Virus record (IMG/VR): IMGVR_UViG_3300042542_000083
Location: 1-26,427 of that record
Strand: one strand, 5' to 3'
DNA from: a virus
Length of the DNA stretch: 26,427 nucleotides
Positions 1 to 4,105 of the stretch are shown here, piece by piece (the stretch's first letter is position 1; each line of letters starts with the position of its first letter). The notes under the pieces are model-generated. The model saw nothing but the letters and a program-made list of their open reading frames with translations. It had not been told where the DNA came from and ran no database searches. A program made the position numbers and the translations under genes.

Positions 1-367
1 TATAACGTGACGGCCCGGAACCGAGGGAGGTTTAGAACTTTTAATTATATAAAATGGGGAGTCTCGGTTCCTCTGGGCTGGGCGCTGGACCGGCAGTGGG
101 AAGGTTGAGGCTAGGTTGGCTACGAAAGCTACAGACGTGCGAAGGGAGTCGTAGATATTTGCATGGCTTTGCAAATGTCTTCCAGTATCCGTTTAGCATC
201 TAGTGTGTAGCCACTAGGGAAGCTCAGGCCGTATTACCGTTAGGTGCGTACCGTTTTATTGCTTCCGACCCAGTCTTCCCTTTCGGGTGGTACCGTTCTT
301 CACGGTTGGGCCAAATGTATATCTCATGCCATTGAGGGCGCGACTCCTTACGCCCGGATACTTGTTT
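1..367. other. Gene-free, strongly folded left-end region
   Basis: No convincing gene is seen here. The stretch is dense in inverted repeats that could fold as RNA on either strand: 17-25 with 63-71 (9 bp), 120-125 with 149-154 (6 bp), 154-162 with 171-179 (9 bp, one G-U), 200-205 with 212-217 (6 bp), 292-296 with 302-306 (5 bp) and 336-340 with 351-355 (5 bp). The heptamer TACCGTT occurs at 235, 249 and 291, with starts 14 and 42 nt apart. The density of hairpins suggests a non-coding RNA or a cis-acting region, but no known family is recognised and the strand is undecided. The plus-strand reading frame over 244-483 runs antisense to the HNH gene and has no protein-like features, so it is not called. 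Confidence 0.4.
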
Positions 368-850
368 CTACCTTCTCCAATCGGTTTGATCCAGATTGGA
401 TTTACCTACGTTGCAAGCCTCACACAAGACTTGCAGATTACTTGGTTCAAGCTCCAGCTCTGGGAACTTGGAACGTGGCTTGATGTGGTCTACGTGTAAG
501 TAGCCATCCTTCGAGCCACAGCACATACAGATTTTGCCATATTTTACAAAGATGGAGTACCTAAGCTGTCTCCATTCTTTAGTGATATAGAAGTCAGAAC
601 CCATGCCTTTTTGGTATATAGGCGCATTGCTTAAATTGACAGGCTTTGCCTTCTTTGATTGCTTTTTTGAAATGGCAGTAGCTCGTTGAGATATGAGCTT
701 TTGAATTTCAGGGGATTGACTGGCTAGTTTGGCAAGTGTCTTCTTAGCCTTTTCTTGACGCTTCTTTTTTTTCTTGGCAGCGTCTTTGTAGATGGAAGGC
801 TTGCCGTAGCTCATCGAAAGACGAACCGGGCCGATGGTGGGAGTTTTCAT
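368..850 (-). CDS. HNH homing-type endonuclease (free-standing)
   Basis: 160-residue protein of the HNH nuclease superfamily, which nicks or cuts DNA with a beta-beta-alpha metal finger. The N-terminal half (about 20-70) is lysine-rich and likely binds nucleic acid. The HNH core fills 105-150: Cys108 and Cys111, the VDHIKPRS segment with Asp121 and His122, Asn138 in the SNLQ segment, then Cys143 and Cys146 followed by Asn147. This is the order expected for an intact zinc-supported HNH fold. It is the only gene read leftwards in the window and is divergent from the SSB-like gene. Sampled GC is about 40%, lower than the head genes. No strong ribosome site precedes the start. It ends next to the folded region 1-367. 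Probably a mobile nuclease; a packaging-associated HNH is possible but those usually lie beside terminase. Confidence 0.8.
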   Translation of the reverse strand: MKTPTIGPVRLSMSYGKPSIYKDAAKKKKKRQEKAKKTLAKLASQSPEIQKLISQRATAISKKQSKKAKPVNLSNAPIYQKGMGSDFYITKEWRQLRYSIFVKYGKICMCCGSKDGYLHVDHIKPRSKFPELELEPSNLQVLCEACNVGKSNLDQTDWRR

Positions 851-1002: not shown

Positions 1003-1299
1003 ATGACTAATTACGTGACTCCGTACGAGTTAAAAGATAACCGTGGGAATCTGTTTTTAAACAAGAAAAAGAAGAATGAGGACAGCCCGGACTGGTCGGG
1101 GAAGTTGAAGTTGAATGGGCAGGAGTTTTACCTGTCAGCATGGGAAAAGAAGACAAAAGCTGGGGATACGTTTTTTAATGTGTCTCTAGGAAAGATGGTC
1201 CCAGCACAGCCCACAATGAGCCAGCACAGTATAGATAAGGGCAATGGGTATGCCCCCGGCGATAGGAAAGACACGCTGGATGAGGAAATCCCATTCTGA
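1003..1299 (+). CDS. Small SSB-like protein with acidic C-terminal tail
   Basis: 98 residues from the ATG at 1003, chosen because GGAG at 993-996 sits 6 nt upstream; an in-frame TTG at 967 lies inside the inverted repeat and has no ribosome site. The central part has short beta-strand-like segments (KLKLNGQEFYLSAWEKK, then DTFFNVSLGKM), as in small phage proteins that resemble OB-fold or DUF736-like proteins. The protein ends in DEEIPF, very close to the DDDIPF tip that bacterial single-stranded DNA-binding proteins use to recruit partner proteins. This suggests a replication or recombination role on single-stranded DNA. The tail match is seen directly; the fold is inferred. It is the only replication-type gene in the window. 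Confidence 0.6.
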   Translation: MTNYVTPYELKDNRGNLFLNKKKKNEDSPDWSGKLKLNGQEFYLSAWEKKTKAGDTFFNVSLGKMVPAQPTMSQHSIDKGNGYAPGDRKDTLDEEIPF

Positions 1300-1303
1300 T
1301 ATA

Positions 1304-1331
1304 TTGACAGGGGGAAAGCGGATTTTACTGT
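1304..1331 (+). promoter_or_regulatory. Candidate sigma70-like promoter before the Cys-rich pair
   Basis: A perfect -35 hexamer TTGACA (1304-1309) and a TACTGT hexamer (1326-1331, 4 of 6 to consensus) are separated by 16 nt. They begin just after the SSB-like stop codon and could drive the two cysteine-rich genes separately from the replication genes. The -10 is mediocre, so this is a candidate only. Confidence 0.35.
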
Positions 1332-1405
1332 TCGGCATATGCCCCCACGCGGCAGAAGTTCAGTAATGGAGCGAGTACCCATCCTATAACCCCAAAGGGA
1401 GCCAC

Positions 1406-1552
1406 ATGACCTACCTGTTAGCAATATCACTAAGCCTGCCACCGCCAGATACTTTAGAGAAGTGCTTCTGGCGACACTACTGTACGCTAGAGAAGTGCGT
1501 CAGTTGCTCAATCTGCTGTTATGAGTCATCCTGTATGAAAAGCTGTTTCTGA
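1406..1552 (+). CDS. Cysteine-rich 48-residue protein, copy A
   Basis: Starts at the ATG at 1406, behind a good ribosome site (AAAGGGAG, 1394-1401). The 48-residue product has cysteines at 20, 26, 31, 34, 37, 38, 43 and 47, spacing C-x5-C-x4-C-x2-C-x2-CC-x4-C-x3-C. Copy B, 231 nt downstream, has the same length and exactly the same cysteine positions with about 40% identity (19 of 48 by hand). The N-terminus MTYLLAISLSL is hydrophobic, but it lacks the basic residue and the clear signal peptidase site seen in copy B, and PPPD follows it. Copy A may therefore be poorly secreted or diverging. Eight cysteines in 48 residues suggest a disulfide-rich miniprotein or a metal-binding knuckle. No family is recognised. 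Confidence 0.7.
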   Translation: MTYLLAISLSLPPPDTLEKCFWRHYCTLEKCVSCSICCYESSCMKSCF

Positions 1553-1636
1553 AATACGGGGGAAAGCTGTGTCGATCATCAGTAGGTCGTCAAGGGTTAC
1601 AGTGAGTACCCCACCCGATAATCCGAAAGGAGCCAT

Positions 1637-1783
1637 ATGAAATACCTGTTCGCACTCTGGCTGGCAATTACAGCCCCTCTGGTCTACGCGACCTGCACCT
1701 ATAACACTTACTGCGATGCTGGCCGGTGCGTTACTTGTACCACCTGTTGCTATGGAGCAAGTTGTAATACATCCTGCTACTAG
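1637..1783 (+). CDS. Secreted cysteine-rich 48-residue protein, copy B
   Basis: Starts at the ATG at 1637 after AAAGGAG (1626-1632). Residues 1-18 (MKYLFALWLAITAPLVYA) form a near-ideal signal peptide: Lys2, a hydrophobic core and a V-Y-A cleavage site. The predicted mature peptide is only 30 residues and holds all eight cysteines (20, 26, 31, 34, 37, 38, 43, 47), in the same register as copy A. Non-cysteine positions are rich in Thr, Tyr, Ser and Asn. Export to an oxidising compartment would allow four disulfides. A role at the cell surface or periplasm (superinfection exclusion, interference with a host or competing-phage receptor, or an envelope effect) is only a guess. An inverted repeat overlaps its stop codon. 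Confidence 0.75.
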   Translation: MKYLFALWLAITAPLVYATCTYNTYCDAGRCVTCTTCCYGASCNTSCY

Positions 1784-1789
1784 CAGGAT
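1771..1789 (+). terminator. Hairpin across the stop codon of Cys-rich copy B
   Basis: ATCCTGCT (1771-1778) pairs perfectly with AGCAGGAT (1782-1789) around a 3-nt loop, covering the last codons and the TAG stop. No T-run follows directly, so it is at best a weak or factor-assisted terminator. It may instead be the first helix of the folded region that follows. Confidence 0.3.
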
Positions 1790-1797
1790 TTAGCCCA

Positions 1798-2100
1798 GCC
1801 GCAGGTGGCGCAGGTTTTTAGTTTGTTTTTCCCTGCTAACAGCGGCAGTGTGGAACCGCTCCCCTATGAATCGGTCAGACCACACGGACACCTCGGAAAG
1901 ACGAGGACTAACACGCATGAGGATTGGCTTACTACTGGAAAGTCCGGACTAAAGGTAGTGAGATCAGCGGAGTGTCCTTAGTGACTAAGCGGCCTCGTAA
2001 GGGCGCAGTCCTCAGTCGTGTTGGTGAATGCGTAGGCTGATACGCGACGATTGCGGCCCCTCCCAGTCGGTGCTAATGCCGGAGATCAGTACCGGCCACC
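1798..2100 (+). ncRNA. Putative structured non-coding RNA upstream of terminase
   Basis: No gene is supported between the second Cys-rich gene and terS. The stretch folds by hand into consistent helices: 1798-1802 with 1842-1846 and, nested in it, 1810-1814 with 1832-1836; 1848-1853 with 1880-1885 extended by 1855-1858 with 1872-1875; 1891-1895 with 1902-1906 (GAAAGA loop). A long-range helix 1908-1915 with 2017-2024 encloses 1919-1925 with 2007-2013. Inside that lie 1928-1935 with 1955-1962, 1977-1981 with 1985-1989, and 1989-1995 with 2000-2006 (one mismatch). Then come 2030-2034 with 2041-2045, and 2078-2082 with 2092-2096 capped by 2069-2072 with 2097-2100. The layout resembles a multi-branched RNA. 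Position suggests a packaging RNA, a pac-site element or a leader regulating terminase; none of these is shown. The plus strand is inferred from the neighbouring genes. No known RNA family is recognised. Confidence 0.5.
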
Positions 2101-2118
2101 AACAACCTATAAAAGACT

Positions 2119-2562
2119 ATGAGCGTAAGCAAACAAATACCATCGATTAAGAACTGGGGCGGCGTTCGCAGAATCCAAGAACGATTAGGCGGCTCCACCA
2201 CCATCGCTAAAAACAGAGAAGCAGTGGCCTATGCCCTGCTAACGATTGCCAATACCAAGTTGACCGACATCATGGAGTGGGATGAAACCGGCAACATTAA
2301 GGTCAAAGCCAGCAAAGACATCCCTGAACACGCCCTGCAAGCAATCAAGTCCATTAAGGTCAACGAACGCTACGACAAAGAAGGCGGGTGCGTCAGAACA
2401 CTCGACATCGAACTGTACGACAAAGTGGGTGTACTACGCATCTTGGCTAAAGCCTCTGGCCTATTGGATACCGTTGAGGATTCCGATAAACCGAGTGTGA
2501 TCGGTATCAACGTCAAAGCCCCTGAGATCATCGACGCAGAGGAAGTCCGTGAGCAAAACTAA
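2119..2562 (+). CDS. terS: Terminase small subunit
   Basis: 147-residue protein that would recognise the phage packaging site and load the large subunit. It resembles podovirus small terminases: a helical N-terminal DNA-binding part (residues about 15-60, including the RIQERLGGSTT and AVAYALLTIANTKLTDI segments), a central stretch KVKASKDIPEHALQAIKSIKV, and the LYDKVGVLRILAKASGLLD helix near 105-125 that is typical of the family. The C-terminus is acidic and loosely conserved and probably meets the large subunit. It lies directly before and overlaps the large-subunit gene, the normal order. The ATG at 2119 has no clear ribosome site, so translation may depend on the folded leader upstream. 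The family call rests on pattern similarity. Confidence 0.75.
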   Translation: MSVSKQIPSIKNWGGVRRIQERLGGSTTIAKNREAVAYALLTIANTKLTDIMEWDETGNIKVKASKDIPEHALQAIKSIKVNERYDKEGGCVRTLDIELYDKVGVLRILAKASGLLDTVEDSDKPSVIGINVKAPEIIDAEEVREQN

Positions 2563-4105
2563 AGAAGCAGGTACCAAAGAGATGCCCGTAACCGGGCTGA
2601 ACTTAGACTTTTCCACCAGCCCAATGGCGTGGAAATTCCTGCGGTCTAACGCTTTCGTTCGCGGCATCATGGGGCCAGTAGGTTCCGGCAAGTCATACGC
2701 CTGCTGCGCTGAGATCATGATGAAGGCCGTGCAGCAAAAGCCTTCTCCGATTGACGGCATCAAGTACAGCCGCTTTGCGATTGTCCGAAACAGCTACCCA
2801 ATGCTGAAGACGACAACAATCAAGACATGGCTCGACCTGTTCCCAGAAAATACTTTCGGGCCACTGCTATGGACACCACCGATTACTCACCACATCCGAC
2901 TGCCTGCGAGAGAAGGTGCCGCTGGAATCGATTGCGAAGTCATCTTCCTTGCACTGGATCAGCCAAAGGATGTCAGAAAGCTGCTGTCGTTGGAGTTGAC
3001 TGGTGCATGGGTCAACGAAGCACGGGAACTACCCAAGGCAGTCATCGATGGACTGACACACCGAGTCGGACGATACCCGACTAAACGTGATGGTGGTGCA
3101 ACTTGGCACGGCATCATCATGGATACCAACCCAATGGATGACGACCATTGGTGGTTCAGACTGGCAGAAAAGGAGAAAATGAGTGGGGCCTTCAAATGGG
3201 AGTTCTTCAGACAACCCGGTGGAGTCGAAGAAGCAGATGTTGCAGAACTTCCAGAAAATCCTGAAGCTAACGATTGCATCTATAGTGCAGGAAGATGGTG
3301 GAAAAAGAATAGCAAAGCTGAAAACATCGGCAATCTACCAGCAGGCTACTACCAGCAAATGCTCCTTGGAAAAAACCTAGACTGGATTCGCTGCTACGCC
3401 GAAGGTAAATACACTTATGTGCAGGAAGGCCGACCCGTATGGCCTGAGTACGACGACAATATGATGTCATCCGACTTGGATTACGACTCCAGCCTGCCCA
3501 TCCACGTTGGCCTCGACTTCGGCTTGACCCCAGCCGCCGTCATCGGACAGAAAACAGGCGCAGGTACATGGAATATCCTGCACGAAATCGTCACCTTCGA
3601 CATGGGCCTTGAGCGTTTCGGCCAGCAATTACTGGGTGAACTGAACGCCAGATACCCAAAAGCCCAAGTATTAGTGTGGGGCGACCCCGCCGGTATGCAA
3701 CGTGACGCTATCTACGAAGTCACTGCCTTCGATCACCTGCGAACACTGGGGTTACGCGCACAACCTACCCCCAGTAACGACTTCAAAGTACGCCGGGAAG
3801 CCGCAGCCGCACCCATGCAACGCCTAATCGGCGGTAAACCCGGCCTGCGTGTGGACAAATCCTGCAAACTTCTTAGGAAATCCCTAGCCGGTGGCTACCA
3901 CTTCAAGCGAATTTCAGTCGGCGCAGGGCAAGAACGCTTCCGGGACGCACCCAACAAGAATGAACACTCCCACGTTGGCGACGCATTCGGGTATCTACTG
4001 CTAGGTGGCGGCGAACACCGCAGAATGACCAAGAATTCCCACCTGCCCACAGGGACCTTCACCGCACAAACCATCGCTAACAGCGACTTCGATGTCTTCG
4101 CATGA
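2549..4105 (+). CDS. terL: Terminase large subunit (packaging ATPase and nuclease)
   Basis: 518-residue DNA-packaging motor that translocates DNA into the procapsid and cuts it. ATPase half: Walker A GPVGSGKS at 42-49, Walker B region LSLELTGAWVNEA at about 147-159, and coupling motif MDTNP at 191-195. Nuclease half (RNase H fold): GLDFG at 321-325 with Asp323, VWGDPAG at 376-382 with Asp379, and HVGDAFGY at 475-482 with Asp478, giving the usual acidic triad. Length is normal. The start is the GTG at 2549, supported by GAGGAA at 2538-2543; it overlaps terS by 14 nt in another frame, so the two subunits are probably translationally coupled. The gp13-like gene starts within its stop codon. Confidence 0.95.
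   Translation: MSKTKEAGTKEMPVTGLNLDFSTSPMAWKFLRSNAFVRGIMGPVGSGKSYACCAEIMMKAVQQKPSPIDGIKYSRFAIVRNSYPMLKTTTIKTWLDLFPENTFGPLLWTPPITHHIRLPAREGAAGIDCEVIFLALDQPKDVRKLLSLELTGAWVNEARELPKAVIDGLTHRVGRYPTKRDGGATWHGIIMDTNPMDDDHWWFRLAEKEKMSGAFKWEFFRQPGGVEEADVAELPENPEANDCIYSAGRWWKKNSKAENIGNLPAGYYQQMLLGKNLDWIRCYAEGKYTYVQEGRPVWPEYDDNMMSSDLDYDSSLPIHVGLDFGLTPAAVIGQKTGAGTWNILHEIVTFDMGLERFGQQLLGELNARYPKAQVLVWGDPAGMQRDAIYEVTAFDHLRTLGLRAQPTPSNDFKVRREAAAAPMQRLIGGKPGLRVDKSCKLLRKSLAGGYHFKRISVGAGQERFRDAPNKNEHSHVGDAFGYLLLGGGEHRRMTKNSHLPTGTFTAQTIANSDFDVFA

What the first reader, a model, noticed from the sequence alone, without database searches (positions are those of the whole stretch)
1798..2100. Putative multi-branched structured RNA immediately upstream of terminase
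At least ten helices of 4-8 bp can be drawn by hand without conflict, including a long-range 8-bp helix (1908-1915 with 2017-2024) enclosing a second 7-bp helix (1919-1925 with 2007-2013) and a branched interior. The only small reading frames are unsupported. An alternative pairing, 1904-1909 region with the same AGTCCTC strand, could make a switch. The position before terS suggests a packaging-related RNA, a pac element or a leader controlling terminase. I cannot match it to a known RNA class.
Basis: partly seen in the sequence, partly recalled or inferred. Interest (0 to 1): 0.75.

Follow-up and report, generated by a model that had tools for sequence, protein, structure and literature searches.

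The report
Widespread tRNA-shaped phage RNA module
The stretch before the terminase gene encodes a real folded RNA whose 3' part belongs to a family, found in no RNA catalogue I could search, carried by more than a hundred unrelated phages and prophages; it has the stem lengths of a tRNA with its two loops locked together, and its function is unknown.

Summary
Folding energy alone would not show it (z -1.1); homologues do. Window 2020-2103 is one copy of an RNA module found in more than 100 unrelated phages and prophages. It has a 7-bp closing stem, an AAT linker, a 4-bp hairpin (loop AGGCTGAT), a hypervariable insert (12-178 nt) and a 5-bp hairpin (loop AGATCAGYA) abutting the closing stem. 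The two loops can pair over up to 6 bp. Closing-stem pairs are 97-100% kept over 72 distinct arms, with many compensatory changes, and the loop-loop pairing also covaries. Stem lengths 7/4/5 are those of tRNA. In E. coli prophages one slot holds this module, another fold, or a real tRNA-Arg gene. No Rfam family matches it; the nearest, STnc100, shares the frame. The overlapping upstream hairpin (1908-2024) belongs to a recurrent partner, so the proposed alternative pairing is real in sequence, its use untested. The terminase link is not supported: near relatives lack the RNA, and only one other copy lies beside terS. I read it as portable noncoding-RNA cargo, a tRNA-like scaffold presenting a variable segment. 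Fold and family are well supported; mechanism is inferred.

The parts
1848..1885 (+). Hairpin Pa, GTGTGG (1848-1853) with CCACAC (1880-1885)
   Evidence: Kept in L003, L007 and L015; replaced by CAGCAGG/CCTGCTG in L012/L013, a compensatory change (read; positions)
1889..1906 (+). Hairpin Pb, CACCTCGGAAAGACGAGG
   Evidence: CCTCG/CGAGG becomes CCCCG/CGGGG in L012/L013. Nearly the same hairpin stands upstream of the module in Enterobacter phage BUCT554 and in E. coli prophages
1908..2024 (+). Upstream ('class B') hairpin: helices 1908-1915/2017-2024 and 1919-1926/2006-2013, branched interior
   Evidence: Helices exact, compensatory changes in L011. Recurrent partner of the module: 49 of 131 copies have the exact upstream 6-nt complement against 7.6 expected, about 60% of copies with an upstream complement have an inner helix of at least 7 bp
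2020..2026 (+). 5' strand of the 7-bp closing stem, GTTGGTG
   Evidence: Pairs 2097-2103; 97-100% paired over 72 distinct arms, 8th pair only 60%
2027..2029 (+). Conserved AAT linker
   Evidence: Invariant or nearly so in alignment A1
2030..2045 (+). Hairpin 1, GCGT-AGGCTGAT-ACGC (4 bp, 8-nt loop)
   Evidence: Compensatory stems GCGC/GCGC, GCGT/ACGC, GCAC/GTGC, GAGC/GCTC
2046..2077 (+). Hypervariable insert, 32 nt here, 12-178 nt in the family (median 70)
   Evidence: Length list; no 12-nt sense or antisense match elsewhere in the window
2078..2096 (+). Hairpin 2, GCCGG-AGATCAGTA-CCGGC (5 bp, 9-nt loop), directly abutting the closing stem
   Evidence: 94-98% paired at each pair over 101 copies chosen by loop, not stem
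2036..2041 (+). Loop 1 kissing strand GCTGAT, complementary to 2085-2090 ATCAGT
   Evidence: 95.9% of cells paired in A1; double changes in 3 of 6 pairs
2085..2090 (+). Loop 2 kissing strand ATCAGT
   Evidence: As above; GGTCGAT/TCGAC variants in L203, L208, L300
2097..2103 (+). 3' strand of the closing stem, CACCAAC
   Evidence: no CCA end follows (AACCTATAAA)
2119..2562 (+). terS, 15 nt downstream of the module; neighbour, not part of the RNA
   Evidence: Pfam PF03592 Terminase_2, E 3e-05, 1 bit under the cut-off

Best explanation
The window carries a phage noncoding-RNA cassette of roughly 250 nt (1848-2103). Its 3' domain (2020-2103) belongs to a widespread RNA module that is not in Rfam: a 7-bp stem, a 4-bp hairpin and a 5-bp hairpin whose loops kiss. 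That gives the stem lengths and loop-to-loop contact of a tRNA elbow, with a hypervariable insert where the anticodon arm would be. Phages carry it as interchangeable cargo: in one E. coli prophage slot the same flanks hold this module, another fold, or a real tRNA-Arg gene. Most likely the constant frame makes a compact, nuclease-resistant scaffold that is recognised by a constant host factor (a tRNA-processing or RNA-binding protein), while the insert and the upstream hairpin loop carry what differs between phages, so that it works as a noncoding RNA and not as a terminase leader or packaging signal. Shown: sequence family, base pairing, loop-loop covariation, slot exchange, independence from terminase. 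Inferred: tRNA-like three-dimensional shape, transcription here, host factor, role.
For: BLAST matches in two conserved blocks of 100 phage records, mostly in unannotated intergenic DNA. Closing stem 97-100% paired over 72 distinct arms chosen without reference to that stem, pairing drops at the 8th position. 98.8% of cells paired in A1, 11 of 22 pairs with double changes, 0 of 500 shuffles, sliding destroys it. Kissing-loop double changes in L203, L208, L300 and single-site compensation in L097, L304, P7. Hairpin 1 compensation. Slot exchange between identical flanks: module in about 460 E. coli genomes, tRNA-Arg form in about 490, third fold. Nearly identical module (98.5%) in a lambdoid prophage type and a P1-like plasmid. 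Terminators within 160 nt downstream in 21 of 112 copies against 5 of 112 controls. Related STnc100 and PasD RNAs are transcribed, PasD Hfq-bound (PMC5331693, PMC13192938).
Against: No transcript evidence for this RNA. tRNA neighbourhood is modest overall: 14 of 100 loci within 1 kb against 6% for random points. No CCA end, no T-loop, no ARAGORN hit, so it is no tRNA. The tRNA likeness rests on stem lengths and loop contact, not on a solved structure. The window copy has no promoter or terminator of its own by pattern scan. The loop pairing could be between molecules.
Confidence: 0.5

Rival explanations
1. It is a trans-acting base-pairing small RNA of the STnc100/PasD kind: the frame protects it, Hfq binds it, and the variable insert is the seed that pairs with mRNAs.
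For: STnc100 (RF02076) has the same frame: closing GGUG/CACC stem, AAU linker, hairpin 1, hairpin 2 of 5 bp abutting, and both types stand in one array in P1-like plasmids. PasD aligns with STnc100 and was found by Hfq RIL-seq (PMC13192938). Some copies have a promoter-like site and a terminator close by.
Against: The window copy runs into terS without a terminator. Only 21 of 112 copies have a nearby intrinsic terminator. No 12-nt complementarity of the inserts elsewhere in the window.
Confidence: 0.2
2. It is an RNA antiterminator like HK022 put, which modifies RNA polymerase so that it reads through terminators into the early, tRNA or late operon.
For: In L196/L204 it starts just after a sigma-70-like promoter and stands before a terminator; in L335 it lies just after nutL and before N; in phiEt88 it follows an antitermination gene.
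Against: put RNA is two stem-loops of about 70 nt (PMC9378689), a different architecture. HK022 25-35.5 kb lacks the module. The next downstream ORF is on the opposite strand in 41 of 112 copies, by simple ORF calls. L335 has N as well.
Confidence: 0.12
3. It is a cis-acting leader switch for terS: strand 2020-2024 swaps between the upstream hairpin and the closing stem and so sets terS translation.
For: Both pairings exist and lie within about 2.5 kcal/mol; the double complementarity recurs in about a third of the family; terS starts 15 nt downstream.
Against: Relatives express the same terS with the RNA absent or replaced; copies elsewhere have no common downstream gene.
Confidence: 0.08
4. 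The module is the footprint of a small mobile DNA element that inserts into hairpins; the structure serves transposition, not RNA function.
For: Discrete presence or absence, different sites, near-identical copies in unrelated phages.
Against: Arms, stems and loop-loop contact covary to keep G-U as well as Watson-Crick pairs, hairpin 1 too; copies lie within longer conserved RNA frames that also accept a tRNA. No transposase travels with it in the 13 annotated phage loci read.
Confidence: 0.07
5. A packaging RNA or pac element.
For: Position before terS in the window and L015.
Against: As for the leader: absent or replaced in close relatives, elsewhere unlinked to terminase.
Confidence: 0.03

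Closest known systems
STnc100 RNA (Rfam RF02076) and PasD sRNA
   Same: Closing stem ending GGUG/CACC, AAU linker, hairpin 1, variable middle, 5-bp hairpin 2 abutting the closing stem; prophage-borne; stands in one array with the present module in P1-like plasmids
   Different: Other hairpin 1 and loops, no AGGCTGAT/ATCAGY pair; the Rfam model does not match the module in any locus searched; STnc100 ends in a terminator, the window copy does not
GOLLD and ROOL RNAs
   Same: Phage RNAs of unknown function often near tRNA islands, kissing loops, a variable linker that can hold tRNAs (PMC12286853)
   Different: Several times larger, other sequence and fold, no Rfam match here
tRNA
   Same: Stems of 7, 4 and 5 bp, 5-bp arm directly on the 7-bp stem, loops of the 4-bp and 5-bp arms in contact; replaces or is replaced by tRNA-Arg in one slot
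   Different: 3-nt linker, no anticodon arm of fixed form, no T-loop, no CCA, ARAGORN negative
HK022 put RNA
   Same: Phage RNA that can lie just after an early promoter (PMC9378689)
   Different: Two stem-loops; no kissing three-helix module

Membership tests
STnc100 (RF02076) | Score above the Rfam gathering threshold | tested here: not met
   No match in the window even at E up to 10
STnc100 (RF02076) | Closing stem, AAU linker, abutting 5-bp hairpin 2 | tested here: met
   Compare
STnc100 (RF02076) | 3' intrinsic terminator | tested here: not met
   None in window 1250-2300
GOLLD / ROOL | Rfam model match and length of several hundred nt | tested here: not met
GOLLD / ROOL | Homo-oligomeric cage | not testable with these tools
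   needs cryo-EM or native gels
tRNA / tmRNA | tRNA or tmRNA gene finder or Rfam hit, T-loop, CCA | tested here: not met
tRNA / tmRNA | 7/4/5 bp stems with loop-to-loop contact | tested here: met
HK022 put antiterminator | Two stem-loops of about 70 nt | tested here: not met
   Three-helix module with a loop-loop pair; put described in PMC9378689
HK022 put antiterminator | Terminator read-through | not testable with these tools
   needs transcription assay
Packaging RNA / pac | Constant link to terminase | tested here: not met

The most novel reading that the evidence does not exclude
A distinct class of phage RNA that mimics the tRNA elbow with a kissing loop, swaps places with tRNA genes, and engages the host tRNA machinery (for example as a processing signal or as a decoy for tRNA-cutting defences).
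Probability: 0.25. Interest if true: 0.85.

Novelty: new variant of a known kind. Interest (0 to 1): 0.62.

Why it matters
A structured RNA present in lytic and temperate phages of Klebsiella, Escherichia, Pseudomonas, Aeromonas, Xanthomonas and others, and with pieces in about a third of complete E. coli genomes (1962 of 5426), is unannotated in almost every record and absent from Rfam 15. Its exchange with a tRNA gene between identical flanks gives a direct handle on what the slot selects for, and links it to STnc100 and Pas RNAs, whose role is also open.

Tried and rejected
Rfam at gathering and relaxed thresholds: no family for the module; the sR4 hit in the window at E 4.3 (1276-1321) is chance. 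Group I intron, ribozyme and riboswitch ideas had no model hit. A tRNA or tmRNA in the window: none. A general tRNA-cluster RNA: only a modest excess near tRNAs. put-like antiterminator: architecture differs. Antisense match of the inserts within the window: none. Covariance model R1 was built with the structure out of register by one column and was not used. The literature search for the conserved sequences found nothing; only open-licence papers were searched. Alignment A1 leaves out several ill-fitting or near-duplicate copies, which I picked by hand, and includes two genome copies (L300, L304) taken for their loop variants, so its percentages are favourable; one search gives the unselected counts. 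Of the genome-contig pattern matches I estimate about 30 to be chance from pattern content, so only copies with a matching hairpin 2 were counted.

Full report
WHAT IS IN THE WINDOW. The window is a 26,427-base virus fragment with terS at 2119-2562, terL at 2549-4105, a head-tail connector and a capsid gene. Between a small cysteine-rich peptide gene (ending 1783) and terS lies no ORF of 60 aa or more.

CLOSE RELATIVES. TerL found 80 related loci. The DNA just before terS is a variable slot: L003 and L007 end the RNA after hairpin Pb and have TCACCC in place of about 1908-2104; L002, L004, L005, L008 and L016 have protein ORFs there; in L009 and L014 the terS start overlaps the stop of the peptide gene; L011 shares the upstream hairpin at about 90% identity with compensatory changes; L015 has the whole arrangement. 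Hairpins Pa and Pb change in compensation in L012/L013.

DISTANT RELATIVES. Blastn of the region hits 100 phage records in two blocks, 2022-2048 and about 2075-2107, with the middle of any length. Thirteen loci were read: Alcaligenes CASP1, Klebsiella UPM 2146, 6991 and Magnus, Pseudomonas ZC08 and PS-1, Aeromonas ST4, Escherichia ep3 and 24-32N, Enterobacter BUCT554, P7, Xanthomonas Kintu, mEp460. In nearly all the match is in unannotated intergenic DNA, several beside tRNA genes.

STRUCTURE. With copies chosen by the loop sequences only, the 7 closing pairs are 97-100% standard pairs over 72 distinct arms, pairs 5-7 using G-C, U-A, A-U and C-G; pairing falls to 60% at the 8th. Hairpin 2 (5 bp) and hairpin 1 (4 bp) are kept, hairpin 1 with GCGC, GCGU, GCAC and GAGC forms. 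Loop 1 GCUGAU and loop 2 AUCAGY are complementary; GGUCGAU goes with UCGAC in L203, L208 and L300, and ACUGAU with AUCAGU in L097, L304 and P7. L113 (ACUGAU with AUCAGC) and L212 (AUAAGC) break one pair each. On alignment A1 98.8% of cells pair, 11 of 22 pairs have double changes, no shuffle of 500 reaches this and sliding by one to three columns destroys it. The 84-nt module alone folds into the family structure as its best and centroid fold.

THE OVERLAPPING PAIRING. The strand before GTG can pair with an upstream strand as well. An exact 6-nt upstream complement occurs in 49 of 131 copies against 7.6 expected, over 14 different sequences, and where an upstream complement exists an inner helix of 7 bp or more follows in most cases against about 5-7% in controls. 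In the window the two states differ by 2.5 kcal/mol in ensemble energy, without counting the kissing pair.

A SLOT THAT ALSO TAKES A tRNA. In mEp460-like prophages a conserved upstream RNA ends in ...GTGCTCTCAGCGTTGTGG and then carries the module, closing with CCACAAC. In E21845 and EH2252 the same flanks hold a wholly different fold. In VE-T9 a real tRNA-Arg begins at the same point. The forms occur in hundreds of E. coli genomes (module form 460 with at least 80% cover; tRNA form 490). In a P1-like plasmid four or more such units stand in a row, including kissing modules and an STnc100-type unit. This is why I compare the module with a tRNA: 7, 4 and 5 bp stems, no spacer between the 5-bp arm and the 7-bp stem, loop-to-loop contact, and an exchangeable position. 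It is not a tRNA: there is no CCA, T-loop or anticodon arm.

FUNCTION. Copies have no common downstream gene. By simple ORF calls the next downstream ORF is on the opposite strand in 41 of 112 cases, and terminators are enriched just downstream (21 against 5 of 112). A general role as cis leader or packaging signal is therefore unlikely. STnc100 copies are transcribed in EHEC and one was seen on a Northern blot (PMC5331693); PasD, related to STnc100, was found with Hfq (PMC13192938). The best reading is a noncoding RNA with a constant tRNA-like frame and a variable displayed part. The host factor and the benefit to the phage are not known; my confidence is about 0.9 for the family and fold, about 0.35 for the mechanism.

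LIMITS. No expression data; no three-dimensional modelling of RNA; only open-licence papers searched; the PasA/PasC sequences were not compared.

Noticed in passing
L083, L089, L090, L091 (about 200-250 nt upstream of the module): A tmRNA-like tag reading frame (for example ANDNTFLAVA*, ANDDVILMAA*) with a sub-threshold match to Rfam tmRNA_permuted (31 bits in L089) stands just upstream of the module in Klebsiella and Escherichia phages.
   Followed up: partly
L087, L091, L095, L099, L211, L339: The apical insert of the upstream hairpin holds T-arm-like GGTTCGAATCC stretches, at its 5' or its 3' side, as if decayed or permuted tRNAs had been built in.
   Followed up: no
L087 2780-2960, L094 2760-2960, L333, L338, L340: A further conserved structured RNA (GGCATATGGCACATG...GTAGCCGGAATGTGCAAGTC) upstream of the module in E. 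coli prophages has no Rfam match either.
   Followed up: no
L335 2480-2640: In a lambda-like prophage the module sits just after nutL, upstream of N, where I recall phage lambda has its N-leader stem (from memory).
   Followed up: partly
window 1406-1552 and 1637-1783: Two 48-aa cysteine-rich peptide frames with a repeated start (GGAGCCAYATGA..TACCTGTT), the second conserved in relatives.
   Followed up: no
window 1-360: A long noncoding stretch beyond an HNH endonuclease gene (368-850, minus strand) looks structured; no match among annotated phages.
   Followed up: partly
L092 2715-2794: Rfam Proteo-phage-1 RNA (RF03044) lies directly upstream of the module in Pseudomonas phage PS-1.
   Followed up: no
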